Shown in pieces: positions 8,606-62,811 of a stretch of 64,000 nucleotides of DNA. Source of the stretch: Agathobaculum butyriciproducens (GTDB lineage: Bacteria; Bacillota; Clostridia; Oscillospirales; Butyricicoccaceae); assembly GCA_003096535.1 (NCBI GenBank), contig QEKJ01000006.1, positions 1-64,000 of the forward strand. Reading direction: 5' to 3'. The translations under genes were made by a program, and so were the position numbers. A model generated the notes under the pieces. The model worked only from the letters and a program-made list of their open reading frames with translations. It did not search any database and was not told the origin of the DNA. Each line of letters opens with the position of its first letter. Position 1 is the stretch's first letter.

Positions 8606-8640
8606 AAGGCAACACCGCACAATTAAAGCGGCGGCTCCTT
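8606..8640 (+). repeat. 35-bp terminal sequence of a MITE-like repeat (solo copy)
   Basis: This 35-base stretch matches 41543-41577 at 34 of 35 positions (AAGGCAACACCGCACAATT versus AAGGCAATACCGCACAATT, then an identical remainder ending GCGGCTCCTT). At 41543 it is the left end of a 233-bp element with an inverted right end; here no right end is seen, so this is a truncated copy at the edge of the accessory region. Confidence 0.7.
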
Positions 8641-21918: not shown

Positions 21919-22085
21919 TGGGGCTCGCTGCAAGGCGGGCTCCTTTTTCTGCACCGAGTTTCCGGGGCATACGAACTGCGTTAGCGTGTTCGCCCCTGCC
22001 GGGCGGCTCCTTTTTCTACACCGGCTGACCGAGGCACACGAACTGCCGCAGGCGAGTTCGCCCCTGACGGGCGGGGGTTTTTCGC
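21919..22085 (+). repeat. Tandem terminator-like repeat units (block A)
   Basis: Two full units of about 67 bases (21952-22017, 22018-22085) and a partial one before them. Each has CACCGRSTK...GGCA, a CGAACTGC..GCGNGTTCG hairpin, then a GCCC-loop-GGGC hairpin and a run of T. The same units occur three times at 55742-55943. The first units also serve as the likely terminator of the MATE gene. Confidence 0.75.
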
Positions 22086-22149
22086 TGAACCTCAGCGGGG
22101 AGTTGCGCTCTTCGGAGTGCGGAGATTCGCCGTACCCACGGCGAGGGGC

Positions 22150-22182
22150 AAGAGGGTAGACACCTACGGTTTCTACCCTCTT
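22150..22182 (+). repeat. Left flanking hairpin of palindrome A
   Basis: AAGAGGGTAGA and TCTACCCTCTT form an 11-bp perfect stem with the 11-base loop CACCTACGGTT. The same loop (CACCTGCGGTT) is found in the left flanking hairpin of palindrome B, on a different stem sequence. Confidence 0.8.
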
Positions 22183-22205
22183 AACTCCCGTTTCCCTTTA
22201 TTTCT

Positions 22206-22617
22206 TAGTCTGGCGCAGATTGCCGACATGTGACCGCTGCGAAATGGGGAACGGCAGTCGGGTTACTCTTGCGTTTATTTCATAAAATATTCGCAGTTCA
22301 CAGATAGCGTACTGCTACACATACGGGCAACTCTACGCTGGGTGCGGCATAACAGTGCCGCACAATTCTTTAGCGCGTTGTTATAGACAGGGCCTGCGAG
22401 AATAAATGCTGCCGAACGCCTACATTCGCAGGTGCCGGGCGTAACAACGTGCAAACGAATTGCGCGACACGGGTATGTCGCGCCTGCGCAGATGAAATCA
22501 CATGTGTAGCAGAACGGTATCTGACACTGCGAACAGGTTGCGAAAGATACAGAAGTAAAAATCCTCTGCCGTTCCCCATTTCGAAGCGGTCACATGTCGG
22601 TAATCTGCGCCAGACTA
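22206..22617. repeat. Large palindromic repeat, copy A
   Basis: A 412-bp imperfect palindrome. The ends TAGTCTGGCGCAGATT and AATCTGCGCCAGACTA are exact inverses; GAAATGGGGAACGGCAG pairs with CTGCCGTTCCCCATTTC; further in, CTGCTACACAT pairs with ATGTGTAGCAG, and the centre has CCTGCGA/TCGCAGG. The whole unit can fold into one long hairpin. It matches 56073-56502 in the same orientation and 14350-14458 in part. There is no convincing ORF inside. A nonautonomous foldback element or a long structured RNA are both possible. Confidence 0.85.
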
Positions 22618-22642
22618 TCTAACAAGGGAAAGGTAGGAGTCC

Positions 22643-22679
22643 AAAGAGGAAGGGAAACCGCAGGTGTCCCTTCCTTTTT
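22643..22679 (+). repeat. Right flanking hairpin of palindrome A
   Basis: A 13-bp stem (AAAGAGGAAGGGA with TCCCTTCCTTTTT, one G-T pair) closes the 11-base loop AACCGCAGGTG, the reverse complement of the left-hand loop. The stem sequence is that of the left flanking hairpin of copy B, so stems are exchanged between the copies while loops stay in place. Confidence 0.8.
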
Positions 22680-22766
22680 GCCCCCGCCGTGGGTACGGCG
22701 TCACCACCGCCGCGGGCGCGGCAGCCCCCCGCACACTCCGCAGAGCGCAACTTTCCGCGATTTCAG

Positions 22767-40232: not shown

Positions 40233-41543
40233 ATGGCTAATCGCTGCACTCGTATTCCCGAGATCATGTTTCCGCGTGAAGGCGTGGACCTGTCCAAGTG
40301 GGCAGTCATCGCCTGCGACCAGTACACCTCTCAGCCGGACTACTGGGCCGAGACTGACAAGACCGTCGGTGACGCACCCTCTACCCTGCGTCTGACCCTG
40401 CCGGAGGTTTATCTGGAGGACGCGGACGTTGCTGCCCGCACGGAGAAAATCCATCAGACCATGCAGCAGTATGTGCAGGACGGCACGCTGCGCACCCTGC
40501 CCGCCGGCGTCGTTCTGACCGAGCGCTGGTCCGGCGGCTCCTGCCCGCGCCGCGGCATCGTGCTGTCGGTCGATCTGGAAGCGTATGAATACACGCCCGG
40601 TTCCGCATCGCTCATCCGCCCGACCGAAAAGACGGTTGTCGAGCGTATTCCGCCCCGTCTCAAGGTTCGTCAGGGCGCGTGCCTGGAGCTGCCGCACATC
40701 ATGATCCTGATCGACGATCCCGACCGTCAGATCATCGAGCCGCTGTTCGAGCAGACCGCCTCTTATGACAAGCTGTACGATACCGACCTGATGCAGAACG
40801 GCGGTCATATCACCGGCTGGTTCCTGCCGAACGGTCCGGAGACCGAGGCCATCGAGGCCAAGCTCGAAGCACTCTGCGACCGCGAGACCTTCAACAAGAA
40901 GTACGGCTGCACGGACGCACAGGCGCTGCTGCCGTATGCAGTAGGCGACGGCAACCACTCCATGGCCACCGCAAAGGCGTACTGGGAAGAGGTTAAGAAG
41001 GGCCTGACTGCAGAGGAGCAGGAGAACCATCCGGCACGTTTTGCACTCGTTGAGGTTGTCAACATCCATGACGAGAGCCTGATCATCGAGCCGATCCACC
41101 GTGCCCTGTTCGGCGTAGACGCCGATGAGCTGCTCGGCGCACTGACCGACTTCTACAACGGCGAGGGCTGCAAGGCTTACGTTGCCGACGAGGCTCCCAA
41201 GAGTGAGAACGCGCACTTCTTCCCGTTCTGCTCGGCGAACAAGTCCGGCGTGTTCATTGTTGAGAACCCGAAGTGGGCCATTCCGGTCGCTACCATCCAG
41301 ACCGGTCTGGACGCTTATCTTGAGACCCACACCTCCGCGAAGATCGACTACATCCACGGCACGGACGTTGTTGTTTCGCTGGCGGAAAAGCCGGGCAACC
41401 TCGGCTTCATCCTGCCGGACATCGCCAAGAACGACCTGTTCCGCGGCGTTGTTTTCGATGGCGTTCTGCCGCGCAAGACCTTCTCCATGGGTGAGGCGCA
41501 CGAGAAGCGCTACTACATGGAGGCAAAGACCATCGTAAAGTAA
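40233..41543 (+). CDS. DUF1015 (COG4198) family protein
   Basis: 436 residues from ATG 40233 after GGAGGAAGG. The family is conserved in Clostridia and often beside serine biosynthesis genes, but its reaction is not established. Marks seen: REGVDLSKWAVIACDQYTSQPDYW at the N-terminus, PYAVGDGNHSMATAKAYWEE near residue 235 (a nuclease-like G-D-G-N-H-S motif), and NPKWAIPVATIQ. Codon bias suggests high expression. Its stop codon is partly inside the MITE-like repeat that follows. Confidence 0.85.
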   Translation: MANRCTRIPEIMFPREGVDLSKWAVIACDQYTSQPDYWAETDKTVGDAPSTLRLTLPEVYLEDADVAARTEKIHQTMQQYVQDGTLRTLPAGVVLTERWSGGSCPRRGIVLSVDLEAYEYTPGSASLIRPTEKTVVERIPPRLKVRQGACLELPHIMILIDDPDRQIIEPLFEQTASYDKLYDTDLMQNGGHITGWFLPNGPETEAIEAKLEALCDRETFNKKYGCTDAQALLPYAVGDGNHSMATAKAYWEEVKKGLTAEEQENHPARFALVEVVNIHDESLIIEPIHRALFGVDADELLGALTDFYNGEGCKAYVADEAPKSENAHFFPFCSANKSGVFIVENPKWAIPVATIQTGLDAYLETHTSAKIDYIHGTDVVVSLAEKPGNLGFILPDIAKNDLFRGVVFDGVLPRKTFSMGEAHEKRYYMEAKTIVK

Positions 41544-41775
41544 AGGCAATACCGCACAATTAAAGCGGCGGCTCCTTGTGCAGGCTCCGGTCGCACTGCC
41601 GCGGTGCTTTGCGGAAATTTTGTGTCCTGACTTTGGCTTCGGTTCCTTGCGCGAGTTCCGTCCGCGCTGCCGAAGTTTCACGGTAATACATCAAGTATTA
41701 CCGCAAAACTGTGCCTCGTCAGTACGCAAAATTTACTCGCAAATCACTCTTGTTCAATTATGCGGTATTACCTAA
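41543..41775 (+). repeat. 233-bp MITE-like element
   Basis: The left end AAGGCAATACCGCACAATT and the right end CAATTATGCGGTATTACCT are inverted copies (about 16 of 18 matching). An inner perfect hairpin CGGTAATAC/GTATTACCG repeats the same core. The left 35 bases recur at 8606-8640. No ORF is present. It lies between the DUF1015 stop and the stop of the next gene. Confidence 0.75.
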
Positions 41776-42993: not shown

Positions 42994-43025
42994 AAAAGCG
43001 GAGAGAGAAAAATCTCCTCCGCTTC
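42994..43025 (-). terminator. Terminator of the alr operon
   Basis: AAGCGGAG pairs with CTCCGCTT around 13 bases; leftward it ends in TTTTC. Confidence 0.7.
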
Positions 43026-43030
43026 AAAGC

Positions 43031-43182
43031 TGTCGCGAAACTACAGTTTCGCCGACAAGCAGGAACGGACCGCAGGCCGTTCCAAAGTCGTCCGAAAGTT
43101 CCTGTTCAGAAACTTTCTCCCTCCAGAAGTAAGAAAACCGTGATACATGCTCCCGGTTTTCTTGCATTTGCAACGCAAATGC
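43031..43182 (-). repeat. Hairpin array, copy 1
   Basis: Five hairpins between the alr stop and the toxin gene: 43031-43057 (TGTCGCGAAACT/AGTTTCGCCGACA), 43062-43083 (GGAACGG/CCGTTCC), 43094-43117 (GAAAGTT/AACTTTC), 43133-43161 (GAAAACCG/CGGTTTTC) and 43164-43182 (GCATTTGC/GCAAATGC). In reverse complement the same order and spacing recur at 47185-47372. Paired stem changes between the copies keep base pairing. Confidence 0.85.
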
Positions 43183-43296
43183 TGTTTTAATAGCGCTGCC
43201 GCGCGATACTATCAAACTAACAGGATACCGACTTTGAGAGACAAATGAAGCGAGGGAAAATCCCTCGCTTCATCTTATGCACGCAATGTCAGTAAA

Positions 43297-47089: not shown

Positions 47090-47096
47090 ACAAAAA

Positions 47097-47122
47097 AACG
47101 AGAGGTCTTTTGACCTCTCGTT
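47097..47122 (+). terminator. Terminator of the amidase gene
   Basis: AACGAGAGGTC pairs perfectly with GACCTCTCGTT around four T, followed by CTATCTTT. Confidence 0.88.
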
Positions 47123-47184
47123 CTATCTTTCTTAACGCACTTTACTAACGTCGCAGCTTTTCGCGCGTTAGCGCGCATTTAATA

Positions 47185-47372
47185 GAATTTGCAGTGCAAA
47201 TTCCAAAAAAGCGGGAGCATGTATCGGCGCAGCGCGGCCGAGAAGCCGCGCAAGGATAGCGCAGGATTTTTTGACTTTGGGAGGGAGAAAGTTTCCGTAT
47301 GGGAACTTTCGAACGACTTTGGAACGGCCCACGGTCCGTTCCTCTTGTCGGCCAAACCGTGGTTTGGCGACA
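47185..47372 (+). repeat. Hairpin array, copy 2
   Basis: Hairpins at 47185-47203 (GAATTTGC/GCAAATTC), 47232-47251 (GCGCGGC/GCCGCGC, inside a wider A/T stem), 47287-47310 (GAAAGTTTCC/GGGAACTTTC), 47321-47342 (GGAACGG/CCGTTCC) and 47346-47372 (TGTCGGCCAAACC/GGTTTGGCGACA). It is the same series as 43031-43182 in opposite orientation. It ends six bases before the stop codon of the SDR gene. Confidence 0.85.
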
Positions 47373-47377
47373 GCATC

Positions 47378-48091
47378 TTAAAATCCTCCGGTGACGCCTA
47401 AAACCTGTCCGGTAATGAAAGACGACTTATCCGAGCACAGATACAGAATGCTGTCCGCGACCTCGGCTGCCGCGCCGACTCTTCCGAGCGGTGTCTGATC
47501 GGCAAGCTCCTGCATGGTATCCGCACTGTGCATGGCATTCATGTCGGTGTCGATCACGCCCGGCACAATGCAGTTGACCCGGATATTGCTCGGGCCAAGC
47601 TCCTGCGCGAGCGACTTGCTCAGGCCGATAATCGCAGCCTTGCTCGCGGAATAATGGCTCTCGCAGGACGCGCCGCACTCCCCCCACATGGACGACACCG
47701 TAACGATGCTTCCCTTGTGATTGTGCAGCATTTCAGGCAGCACAGCGCGGATGGTGCGTACCGTACCCATGAGATTGACATCCAGCATGCGCATCCAGTC
47801 CGCGTCGGTGATATTCTGGAACAGCTTTTGTTCGGCGATGCCTGCATTGCAGACCACGGCATCGATGGTGCCGAATCGCGCCTTGACCTCCGCCGCGGCC
47901 AGCTCGACCGCTGCGGTATCCTGCTGGTCGGCCAAAAGCGCCAGTGCGCCAGTCTCCCCAGCGAGCCTGTCCGCCGCCTCACGGCTTTTGCTGTAAGTAA
48001 ACGCGATATTCCATCCGTTTTCGGCAAACGTGCGCACACAGGCGGCACCGATGCCGCGCGAGCCTCCGGTGATGAGAACAGTCTGCGCCAT
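47378..48091 (-). CDS. Short-chain dehydrogenase/reductase (FabG-like)
   Basis: 237 residues from ATG 48091, one base after the pfkA stop. The NAD(P) fold has VLITGGSRGIGAACVRTF, NAGIAEQ, and the catalytic Ser-Tyr-Lys in VTVSSMWGECGASCESHYSASKAAI. C-terminal FITGQVLGVTGGF is the standard FabG ending. It may reduce 3-oxoacyl-ACP or another carbonyl; no fatty-acid genes lie nearby. It ends in the hairpin array. Confidence 0.93.
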   Translation of the reverse strand: MAQTVLITGGSRGIGAACVRTFAENGWNIAFTYSKSREAADRLAGETGALALLADQQDTAAVELAAAEVKARFGTIDAVVCNAGIAEQKLFQNITDADWMRMLDVNLMGTVRTIRAVLPEMLHNHKGSIVTVSSMWGECGASCESHYSASKAAIIGLSKSLAQELGPSNIRVNCIVPGVIDTDMNAMHSADTMQELADQTPLGRVGAAAEVADSILYLCSDKSSFITGQVLGVTGGF

Positions 48092-48092
48092 G

Positions 48093-49067
48093 TCAGATGG
48101 CAACCGTCTGCTGTGCCTCGAACAGGCACTGGTTCAGATCCTTGCTCTGTGCCAGACCCTCCTCAATGTCGATATCGGTAACAATGTTGTTATCCGAAAC
48201 AACAACACGATTGGCCTTGCCCTCCATCAGAGCACGAACCGCAGCATAGCCCATGCGAGTCGCCATAACACGATCCATAGCAGACGGAGAGCCGCCGCGC
48301 TGGATGTGACCAAGGATCGTTACACGGGTATCAATGCCGGTAGCCTCGTGAATCTGGTCTGCAACGGCCTGTGCGGAGCCATAGCCCTCGGCTACGATGA
48401 TGATATGGTGGTTGCGGCCCTTGATACGGCCGATACGCATTTTCTCTACGATCTCGGTGTCGAAATCCAGCTGACGCTCGGGCAGGCAGATCGCGGTCGC
48501 GCCGACTGCACAGCCAACCTGCAGTGCCAGATGACCTGCACGGCGGCCCATGACCTCTACGACCGAGCAACGCTCGTGGGACTGCATGGTATCGCGCAGC
48601 TTATCGATGCACTCGATCGCAGTATTGCAGGCGGTGTCAAAACCGATGGTGTAATCCGAGCAGCCGATATCATTGTCGATGGTACCCGGAACGCCGATGC
48701 ACGGAACACCCTTGCGGGAAAGCGCCTGTGCACCGCGGAATGTACCATCGCCGCCGCAGCAGATCAGGCCGTCAATGCCGAGGTAGCGGCAGGTGTCAGC
48801 CGCTTTCTGCAGACCTTCCTCGGTCAGCATCTCCTTGCAGCGTGCGGTGTACAGCATGGTGCCGCCCTTGCGGATAATGCCGTCTACACTGCGGGCACCC
48901 ATCTCGATGATGTCACCGTTGATGAGACCGCTGTAACCGCGGCGAATGCCGAGAACGGAAATATCGTTTGCGCTTGCGCTGCGGACTACCGAGCGAATAA
49001 GTGCGTTCATGCCGGGTGCGTCGCCGCCGCTGGTAAGTACGCCGATTCTGCGAATTTGTTTATCCAT
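48093..49067 (-). CDS. pfkA: ATP-dependent 6-phosphofructokinase
   Basis: 324 residues. It phosphorylates fructose 6-phosphate in glycolysis. GVLTSGGDAPGMNALIRSVV, GLICCGGDGTFRGAQALSRKG and GVPGTIDNDIGCSDYTIGFDTA with the catalytic Asp are the classic PfkA motifs; the Gly after GGD in GGDGT favours ATP over pyrophosphate. It lies 130 bases downstream of dnaE, an order (dnaE-pfkA) common in Firmicutes. Confidence 0.97.
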   Translation of the reverse strand: MDKQIRRIGVLTSGGDAPGMNALIRSVVRSASANDISVLGIRRGYSGLINGDIIEMGARSVDGIIRKGGTMLYTARCKEMLTEEGLQKAADTCRYLGIDGLICCGGDGTFRGAQALSRKGVPCIGVPGTIDNDIGCSDYTIGFDTACNTAIECIDKLRDTMQSHERCSVVEVMGRRAGHLALQVGCAVGATAICLPERQLDFDTEIVEKMRIGRIKGRNHHIIIVAEGYGSAQAVADQIHEATGIDTRVTILGHIQRGGSPSAMDRVMATRMGYAAVRALMEGKANRVVVSDNNIVTDIDIEEGLAQSKDLNQCLFEAQQTVAI

Positions 49068-55681: not shown

Positions 55682-55741
55682 TCAGTCCAAGCGGGTTTCC
55701 GCAGATTTTTTCGGTTAAAAATCGGATTTTTCTCTATTCGG

Positions 55742-55943
55742 CACCGGCTGAGCGGGGCACTCGAACTGCCGCTGGCGGGTTCGCCCTATCCGGGCGGCAG
55801 CTTTTTTCAGCACCGGCTGACTGGGGCACGCGAACTGCGTCAGCGTGTTCGCCCTATCCGGGCGGCTCCTTTTCTTCACCGGCTGAGCGGGGTACTCGAA
55901 CTGCCACTGGCGGGTTCGCCCCTAACGGGCGGGAAGTTTTTCG
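55742..55943 (+). repeat. Tandem terminator-like repeat units (block B)
   Basis: Three units of about 67 bases (55742, 55810, 55877) of the type CACCGGCTGAGCGGGGCACT, then CGAACTGCC...GGCGGGTTCG, then GCCC-loop-GGGC and a T-run. They match block A at 21952-22085. Unit 2 of B is closest to unit 1 of A (both have TGCG...GCGTGTTCG), the others to unit 2 of A. Confidence 0.8.
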
Positions 55944-56010
55944 CTGAACTTCAGCGAGGGGATTCGCCGTCTGCGGACGGCGGGAACGTTGCGGCGCCCG
56001 CCGCGGGGGC

Positions 56011-56047
56011 AAAAAGGAAGGGACACCTGCGGTTTCCCTTCCTCTTT
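56011..56047 (+). repeat. Left flanking hairpin of palindrome B
   Basis: AAAAAGGAAGGGA pairs with TCCCTTCCTCTTT (one G-T type difference) around the loop CACCTGCGGTT. The stem matches the right hairpin of copy A; the loop matches the left hairpin of copy A. Confidence 0.8.
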
Positions 56048-56072
56048 GAACTCCTACCTTTCCCTTGCTTCC

Positions 56073-56502
56073 TAATCTGGCGCAGATTACCTACATGTGA
56101 CCGCTCCGAAAAGGAGTACGGCAGTCGGGTTACCGCAGCGTGTCTTTCTCCGCCTTTTCGCAGTTCACAGACAGCGTACTGCTACACATACGGGCTACTC
56201 TGCGCAGGCGCGGCATAACCGTGCCGCGCAATTCGTGAGCGCGTTATAATAGACAGGGTCTGCGAGAATAAATTGTACCAAACGTCTAAATTCGCAGGTG
56301 CCGTGCGTTACAACGTGCCAAAGAGTTGCGCGGCACTGCTATGCCGCGCCTGCGCAGGCTCTCCGGCCTGTGTAGCAGAACGGTATCTGGCACTGCGTAT
56401 AGGTTTCGGCATGGGAGCACACTGTGCTCCCCTACGGTAGAAAAAATCCTCTGCCGTTCCCTTTTTCGCAGCGGTCACATGTCGGCAATCTGCGCCAGAC
56501 TA
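56073..56502. repeat. Large palindromic repeat, copy B
   Basis: A 430-bp imperfect palindrome with ends TAATCTGGCGCAGATT and AATCTGCGCCAGACTA. The inner blocks match copy A in order and orientation: GACCGCTCCG, ACGGCAGTCGGGTTAC, GCGTACTGCTACACATACGGGC, GACAGGGTCTGCGAGAATAAA, GTGTAGCAGAACGGTATCTG. Copy B carries an extra GGGAGCACACTGTGCTCCC hairpin at 56413-56431. No gene inside. Confidence 0.85.
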
Positions 56503-56525
56503 TCCAAGGGAAAGGGGTGATCCAC

Positions 56526-56558
56526 AAGAGGGTGGAAACCGCAGGTGTCTACCCTCTT
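56526..56558 (+). repeat. Right flanking hairpin of palindrome B
   Basis: AAGAGGGTGGA pairs with TCTACCCTCTT (one G-T) around the loop AACCGCAGGTG. The stem is that of the left hairpin of copy A, the loop that of the right hairpin of copy A. A second TCTACCCTCTTGTGCCCCTG follows at about 56588. Confidence 0.8.
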
Positions 56559-56710
56559 GTGCGCCCGCGCGGCGTCAGCGCAGATGTCTACCCTCTTGTG
56601 CCCCTGCCGGGCAGGCAAGATTTCCTCGCTTCGCAAGCGACACTCTGCCATTCTGCACCTGAACGCAAAAGAGGAACACTGCTGCCTCGCAGTGTCCCTC
56701 TTTGCGCATA

Positions 56711-62464: not shown

Positions 62465-62562
62465 AATAAATGACCTCCCTTTTTCGTTTTTTAAGAATTA
62501 CTTTATTATAGCACTGCGGTGCAGTTCTGTCTATGCTTGGAGCAGAAATTTTGCGGCTGCGG

Positions 62563-62802
62563 AATGGAGAATTGAAAATGGAGGATGGAGAATGAACGTG
62601 ATTGGCAATCGGTGTACCGCACAAACGAATTTTCACGAACTGCATCGCAGGAGCGAACATTATTCGCCCACACCCATTTAACGGCAATGCGGGCGCACAC
62701 TGTGCGCCCTACGGGATAACCGATGCCGATGAATTGCCCAATCCATTCACACAAATGAAACCATCGAGTTAATTCTCCATTTTCTATTCTCAATTCTCCA
62801 TT
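62563..62802. repeat. 240-bp element with inverted GGAGAATT-type ends
   Basis: Left end AATGGAGAATTGAAAATGG (62563-62594 in full) and right end (62771-62802; ending TCAATTCTCCATT) are near-perfect inverted copies over about 31 bases. Inside lies GGGCGCACactGTGCGCCC (62691-62709) followed by TACGGG. A related half-element, ATTCTCAATTTTCCATTCTC, precedes ssrA at 11525-11549. There is no ORF of interest. Confidence 0.75.
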
Positions 62803-62811
62803 ACTCAGCAA

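What the first reader, a model, noticed from the sequence alone, without database searches (positions are those of the whole stretch)
47185..47372. Modular hairpin array with paired compensatory changes, two copies in opposite orientation
The arrays at 43031-43182 (minus) and 47185-47372 (plus) hold the same series of hairpins. Between copies the stems change in pairs: TGTCGGCGAAACT/AGTTTCGC versus TGTCGGCCAAACC/GGTTTGGC (two double changes), GCATTTGC/GCAAATGC versus GAATTTGC/GCAAATTC. This is the signature of conserved secondary structure.
Basis: seen in the sequence. Interest (0 to 1): 0.76.

Follow-up and report, generated by a model that had tools for sequence, protein, structure and literature searches.

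The report
Mobile hairpin array that duplicates terminators
The two hairpin arrays belong to a family of small mobile DNA elements in the gut bacterium Agathobaculum that insert at the stop signals of genes, leave a copy of the stop-signal hairpin on both sides, and keep the shape of their own hairpins while the letters change in pairs.

Summary
The window copies are 2 of 73 covariance-model hits in the genome; all 25 genomes searched in the genus (Agathobaculum) carry 9-116 hits. Stems covary strongly (23 of 26 pairs with double changes; 0 of 500 shuffles reach the score). G.U pairs are nearly absent (1.1% of paired cells, 8.5% in a tRNA control), which suggests that pairing matters on both strands or as DNA.

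Copies with intact surroundings are about 200-230 nt (to about 300 with inserts), end in CAGNCTGTCRAAA-type inverted repeats and are flanked by a direct repeat of 18-44 nt that in nearly all cases is a whole terminator-like hairpin. Five of eight insertions tested in one genome have the matching empty site, with one hairpin, in a sister genome: recent movement with whole-hairpin target duplication. Older copies lack terminator copy and ends but keep the array, often next to a stop codon.

None of three transposase families tested co-occurs with it; Rfam has no match. Best reading: a non-autonomous, structure-targeted mobile element moved in trans by an unidentified enzyme and retained at gene 3' ends. 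Closest precedent: the stem-loop model for IS1272, whose hypothetical pathway b predicts this duplication. New variant of a known kind.

The parts
43246..43272 (-). Copy A, terminator-like hairpin on the H0 side, downstream of the alanine racemase gene (TGAAGCGAGGGATTTTCCCTCGCTTCA); possibly a diverged duplicate of the one at 42996-43024
   Evidence: read; the similarity of the two hairpins is by eye, the gapless repeat finder scored only 8
43192..43205 (-). Copy A, H0 hairpin (CGCGCGGCAGCGCT)
   Evidence: model hit 43131-43207
43164..43182 (-). Copy A, H1 hairpin GCATTTGC..GCAAATGC
   Evidence: covariation of this helix
43131..43163 (-). Copy A, H2 hairpin AAGAAAACCGGGAGCATGTATCACGGTTTTCTT
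43094..43117 (-). Copy A, H3 hairpin GAAAGTTTC..GGAACTTTC
43062..43083 (-). Copy A, H4 hairpin GGAACGGCC..GGTCCGTTCC
43030..43057 (-). Copy A, H5 terminal hairpin TGTCGGCGAAACTGTAGTTTCGCGACAG
42996..43024 (-). Copy A, terminator-like hairpin on the H5 side
   Evidence: scan match within it
47095..47124 (+). Copy B, terminator-like hairpin, matched on both strands, after the amidase gene
47162..47176 (+). Copy B, H0 hairpin CGCGCGTTAGCGCGC
   Evidence: model hit 47160-47272
47185..47203 (+). Copy B, H1 hairpin GAATTTGC..GCAAATTC
47204..47273 (+). Copy B, H2 hairpin, split by module M5
47227..47262 (+). Copy B, optional nested module M5 (GCGCAGCGCGGCCGAGAAGCCGCGCAAGGATAGCGC); present in 15 of 73 own-genome copies
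47287..47310 (+). Copy B, H3 hairpin
47321..47342 (+). Copy B, H4 hairpin
47346..47372 (+). Copy B, H5 terminal hairpin, ending 5 nt before the stop codon of the convergent SDR gene
   Evidence: gene 47378-48103 (-) is PF13561/PF00106

Best explanation
A family of small mobile elements without an evident gene, each a fixed series of about six hairpins. SHOWN: copies with intact surroundings end in inverted repeats, sit at terminator-like hairpins and have a duplicate of the whole hairpin (18-44 nt) on both sides; two sister genomes show empty and filled versions of five sites; base pairing of the stems is kept while letters change on both arms; copies that lack ends and hairpin duplicates keep the array. 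INFERRED (about 0.5): an enzyme supplied in trans joins the element's ends to the two feet of an extruded target hairpin, so the length of the duplication is set by the hairpin, and the element's own fold is needed for mobilisation. INFERRED (about 0.35): old arrays are retained as two-way 3'-end structures in place of the terminator lost by deletion. The enzyme is not identified.
For: Census: 24 of 73 own-genome copies have a direct repeat scoring 18 or more, against 0 of 146 control positions (highest control 14); 23 of those 24 repeats have a stem score of 6 or more. Sister genomes: 15 of 18 elements located in 20 G010 loci and 17 of 21 in 20 G024 loci score 18 or more. Eight joined-flank queries from G010: five match contiguously at 98-100% in G024, each with one hairpin where the filled site has two. 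Loss by deletion: at one site shared by G010 and G024, G024 lacks 55 bases, the left hairpin copy and left end, so that the array follows a stop codon directly. Covariation. Few G.U pairs: 21 of 1,870 paired cells, 1 of 899 in H2, tRNA control 32 of 378. In-place paired changes between species at one orthologous site, L242/L175. Outside the genus the best hit of 12 of 13 genomes keeps the H2 hairpin with its apex, and one of them (L262) has an exact 32-base hairpin duplication.
Against: None of the transposase families tested is present throughout: PF13751 in 9 of 25 genus genomes, PF01797 in 5 of 25 (4 over cut-off), PF01609 in 2 of 6; no long element with such ends between hairpin repeats in 1.6 Mb of G010. 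49 of 73 own-genome copies, both window copies included, have no repeat scoring 18 (one of them scores 14). At another orthologous pair, L154/L041, stem changes are one-sided, as in decay. In the own-genome 3' halves the number of pair types does not exceed shuffles (309 of 500). No transcript or transposition data.
Confidence: 0.74

Rival explanations
1. A structured RNA acting in the 3' untranslated region (terminator, mRNA end protection or regulator), spread by duplication; mobility is incidental.
For: Order and fold of H0-H2 conserved across the genus; 72 of 73 own copies are not between two gene 5' ends; arrays persist where ends and hairpin copies are gone.
Against: G.U pairs are almost missing, unlike one-strand RNA; orientation to the gene is mixed (46 copies with a gene 3' end on the left, 53 on the right); many copies lie beyond an intact terminator-like hairpin, where transcription should be low (inference); no related Rfam match up to E 5 in six loci.
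Confidence: 0.2
2. The paired changes come from mutation, not selection: template switching within imperfect hairpins during replication copies one arm onto the other.
For: One-sided changes stay few at all distances and G.U intermediates are rare.
Against: Among the closest pairs (1-2 unpaired differences, 34 pairs of rows) one-sided changes are somewhat more common than two-sided ones (0.71 and 0.63 against 0.43 and 0.56 per pair), and only with distance do two-sided ones climb to 5.7 while one-sided ones reach about 1, as expected if single changes are purged or compensated. Hairpin duplicates that differ do so on one side or in the loop (by eye).
Confidence: 0.15
3. An IS1182/IS1272-type MITE in the strict sense: the ends are those of an IS of that family, which moved it by the stem-loop pathway.
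For: Ends resemble those of two PF13751 elements in the same genome (GGGACTGTCGCAC and GGCGCTGTTGACAAAGTC); IS1272 targets stem-loops, and the model of Wan et al. includes whole stem-loop duplication as pathway b (PMC5678879).
Against: PF13751 is found in 9 of 25 genus genomes and not in G010 (one contig), G022 or G013, which hold 60, 116 and 85 hits. IS1272 itself replaces the stem-loop and leaves no duplication.
Confidence: 0.25
4. A retroelement or group II-like RNA that inserts at terminators through an RNA intermediate.
For: Heavily structured; group IIC introns insert beside terminators (PMC8919778, passages).
Against: No Rfam group II match even at E 5 in six loci; inverted-repeat ends and duplication of the whole hairpin; few G.U pairs.
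Confidence: 0.07

Closest known systems
IS1272 (IS1182 family), stem-loop-targeting transposition, Wan et al. 2017 (PMC5678879; abstract, most of the discussion and passages read)
   Same: Targets inverted repeats by structure, not sequence; [quoted passage not shown] four of its insertions very near genes were immediately downstream of them (paper's words)
   Different: IS1272 encodes a transposase and deletes the stem-loop without duplication; here no gene is evident, the stem-loop is duplicated, and the element is itself a hairpin series
Bacterial MITEs (review PMC10969869, passages read)
   Same: Small, inverted-repeat ends, target duplications that wane with age, intergenic, folded
   Different: No parent element found; the target duplication is a complete 18-44 nt hairpin; stems shown to covary
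BOX, RUP and SPRITE repeats of Streptococcus pneumoniae (named in PMC10969869, passages; details recalled)
   Same: Hairpin repeats, elements nested in one another, terminator-like stems
   Different: No sequence relation was tested; I do not recall whole-terminator duplication for them
Group IIC introns (PMC8919778, passages)
   Same: Insert next to rho-independent terminators
   Different: Large ribozymes with a reverse transcriptase (recalled); no such core found here
REP/BIME palindromes with a Y1 (RAYT) transposase (recalled)
   Same: Palindromes near gene ends in many copies
   Different: Y1 transposase not found in the own genome and in 5 of 25 genus genomes; long target duplications

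Membership tests
MITE | Terminal inverted repeats | tested here: met
   CAGNCTGTCRAAA-type left ends and their complement on the right in copies with repeats; lost in many old copies
MITE | Target-site duplication | tested here: met
   24 of 73 own copies, 0 of 146 controls; five empty sites
MITE | Related autonomous element with the same ends | tested here: inconclusive
   none seen among TIR hits of five genomes (by eye) or between hairpin repeats in 1.6 Mb of G010; the rest of that genome was not examined
IS1182 / IS1272 | DDE transposase with PF13751 domain present with the elements | tested here: not met
   9 of 25 genus genomes; none in G010, G022, G013
IS1182 / IS1272 | Stem-loop target chosen by structure | tested here: met
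   different hairpin sequences at the sites
IS1182 / IS1272 | Stem-loop replaced, no duplication (as IS1272) | tested here: not met
   whole hairpin duplicated at five sites with an empty ortholog
REP/RAYT | Y1 transposase in the genome | tested here: not met
   none in own genome; 5 of 25 genus genomes
Group II intron | Conserved intron core recognised by Rfam | tested here: not met
   no group II match in six loci at E up to 5
Any Rfam family | Match at gathering score | tested here: not met
   only tmRNA and a tRNA in the window
BOX-type modular repeat | Fixed ends with a variable number of inner modules | tested here: inconclusive
   optional modules M3, M5 or a 44-nt insert occur in 21 of 73 copies; not compared in sequence with BOX

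The most novel reading that the evidence does not exclude
The unit that is inherited and moved is a fold rather than a sequence: an order-wide class of elements without genes in which stems are free to change as long as both strands pair, recognised by an unknown trans-acting enzyme through their hairpins and inserted at the feet of target hairpins, so that target and element are both read by shape. Old copies then become two-way gene ends.
Probability: 0.35. Interest if true: 0.85.

Novelty: new variant of a known kind. Interest (0 to 1): 0.7.

Why it matters
It gives a natural, recent and replicated case (five empty/filled pairs) of a target duplication whose length is set by a hairpin, which the IS1272 authors drew as a hypothetical pathway. 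It shows a mobile element under strong constraint for base pairing, apparently on both strands, and a route by which such elements may take over the ends of genes. The sister genomes make the missing enzyme a tractable search.

Tried and rejected
Autonomous partner: PF13751, PF01797 and PF01609 searches, inspection of L069, L070, L073 and L074, TIR hits in five genus genomes read by eye, arrays sought beside 23 transposase loci (two weak hits, both in L282) and a scan of 1.6 Mb of G010 for long elements between hairpin repeats: none found. Plasmid and phage collections: no match to copy B. Empty sites among loci already held: L048/L039 and L016/L212 were not clean and are not counted. Gene context by raw ORFs was noisy and was replaced by codon-scored calls; these still misread the amidase gene left of copy B (Pfam), so copy B is convergent although one search lists it as 5'/3'. 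A first reading of some order-level hits (and L255) used wrong offsets for loci cut short by a contig end; one search repeated L255, L257, L258 and L260: three of these four hold the H2 hairpin, L257 does not. Literature: five searches of the held library listed no paper on these arrays; that library lacks most subscription papers.

Full report
WHAT IS THERE. The two arrays lie at 43030-43205 (minus) and 47162-47372 (plus). Each is a series H0 to H5 (parts list). Copy A lies between the 3' end of an alanine racemase gene and the 5' end of a PemK/MazF-type gene; copy B between the 3' ends of an amidase gene and an SDR gene, ending 5 nt before the SDR stop codon. The named compensatory changes are correct. 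Folding z-scores are -4.56 and -2.67. Rfam shows nothing for the arrays at gathering score and nothing related at E up to 5 in six loci.

A FAMILY. BLAST with copy B gave 61 matching pieces in the own genome and mostly weak, partial matches in 13 other genomes, all of the genus (14 of 60 in the tally, own included). A covariance model of H0-H2 (77 positions, 26 pairs) found 73 hits in the own genome and hits in 25 of 25 genomes of the genus, 9 to 116 each (at most 150 candidates scored per genome). Ten of those 12 were read: short elements with the same kind of ends. In 295 genomes of the order, 19 had hits, 13 of them outside the genus and weaker (E 5e-10 to 5e-4). The best locus of each of the 13 was read: 12 (L252-L256, L258-L264) keep the H2 hairpin with its conserved apex, L257 does not. 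L262 also has an exact 32-base duplicated hairpin.

COVARIATION. On 76 aligned copies, 98.7% of cells pair, 23 of 26 pairs have a double change, 345 cells have one (shuffles 111.9), and slid structures score at most 0.122 against 0.490. These rows had passed a stem filter (115 candidates, 79 passed, 3 left out), which inflates the percentage but would not by itself create the double changes. On 31 own-genome 3' halves chosen without a pairing rule, 98.4% of cells pair (shuffles 95.0) and 35 cells have double changes (shuffles 6.8); the number of further pair types does not exceed shuffles (309 of 500). G.U pairs are 21 of 1,870 paired cells and 1 of 899 in H2 (pair 67-79, mostly G.T or A.T, left out), while 17 tRNAs from the loci held have 32 of 378. 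A G.U on one strand is an A.C on the other, so this points to a need for pairing on both strands or in DNA (inference). Close relatives show one-sided changes at least as often as two-sided ones; two-sided ones accumulate with distance. One orthologous site in two species shows in-place paired changes (L242/L175), another shows one-sided decay (L154/L041).

MOBILITY AND TARGET. In the own genome 24 of 73 copies are flanked by a direct repeat scoring 18 or more; 0 of 146 control positions reach that (highest 14). In 23 of the 24 the repeat has a stem score of 6 or more, for example AAAGAACCGATACCTTATGGTATCGGTTCTTT; 202-231 nt lie between the repeats in 15 and 249-296 nt in 9. In G010 15 of 18 and in G024 17 of 21 located copies score 18 or more, with 207-216 nt between repeats in all but one of these (227 nt). 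Ends read CAGNCTGTCRAAA or close to it on the left and the complement on the right, the right one being part of hairpin H5. Eight G010 sites were rebuilt without element and second repeat and sought in G024: five match contiguously at 98-100%, one (L357) matches in two pieces with a shorter insert, two (L341, L352) have no match there. At all five, G024 has one hairpin and G010 two. The five inserted elements are not identical: stems differ between some of them while staying paired, though L349 and L350 each show a stem mismatch by eye.

FATE OF COPIES. At one site the element is in both genomes but G024 lacks 55 bases, the left hairpin copy and left end, so that the array follows the stop codon directly. 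In the own genome 19 of 73 copies, none with a repeat scoring 14 or more and including copy B, have a gene's stop codon 94-118 nt beyond H2, about the length of the 3' half. In the 31 3' halves, the 22 classed as without repeat have 34 double and 19 single stem changes against consensus, the 9 with repeat 2 and 2. Codon-scored gene calls give 27 convergent, 41 tandem, 1 divergent, 2 with one side unknown and 2 flagged inside an ORF; they err at least once (copy B). In 1.6 Mb of G010 151 of 624 gaps are divergent by the same method.

NESTED MODULES. M5 sits in the H2 loop of 15 of 73 copies, M3 next to H2 in 4 (3 of them with M5), and a 44-nt insert in the H2 loop of 5. M3 occurs in the other orientation on the other arm of H2 in G010 arrays and in two other hairpin contexts, so it looks like a separate small element that also prefers hairpins (inference).

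MECHANISM. The variable length of the duplication, equal to the hairpin, is hard to get from a fixed-stagger transposase on linear DNA and follows directly if the two strand joins occur at the feet of an extruded hairpin (inference). Wan et al. (PMC5678879; abstract, first part of the discussion and passages read) drew this as pathway b, while their IS1272 deletes the stem-loop. The enzyme here is unknown: PF13751 is in 9 of 25 genus genomes, Y1 in 5 of 25, PF01609 in 2 of 6, and no long element with these ends turned up in 40% of G010.

VERDICT. A real, widespread, recently mobile hairpin array without an evident gene, under constraint for pairing. It works like a MITE aimed at stem-loops; membership in IS1182 is not shown. 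No paper on it was listed in the searches named.

Noticed in passing
window 8606-8640 and 41543-41577: A 35-nt repeat (AAGGCAACACCGCACAATTAAAGCGGCGGCTCCTT, 97% identical); a similar stretch lies left of the L002 copy. Possibly another dispersed element.
   Followed up: no
window 21934-22712 and 55734-56569: Two large related clusters of direct and inverted repeats (families D1-D5, I1-I8), about 33.8 kb apart.
   Followed up: no
window 62556-62602 and 62763-62809: Inverted copies of an ATGGAGAATTGAAAATGGAGGATGG-type repeat; the same motif flanks the copy in L014.
   Followed up: no
L165, L166, L172, L193, L197, L204, L220, L221, L235, L239: A Deltaproteobacteria MAG holds short elements with GAGACTGTCGATAATC...GACAGTCTC-type ends that seem inserted between the two arms of GC-rich palindromes rather than beside a duplicated one.
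   Followed up: partly
L261 (G138 contig 78) and L258 (G176 contig 35): Tandem units (about 183 nt apart) each holding the H2-type hairpin with apex GGGGACATGTGCC, nearly identical in two genomes.
   Followed up: no
L069 (own genome C23:2560-2961): An IS1182-type element about 4 bp after a stop codon, flanked by inverted arms AAATAAGG/CCTTATTT, as if inserted inside a terminator hairpin.
   Followed up: partly
L035 (A. desmolans) against L185 (Ca. A. pullistercoris): The same site holds arrays of different subfamilies with different hairpins beside them in two species: independent insertion or conversion.
   Followed up: no
G010 near 169 kb (L479): A CRISPR-like array with a 32-nt repeat holding a short palindrome; a loose analogy for hairpin-length duplications.
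   Followed up: no
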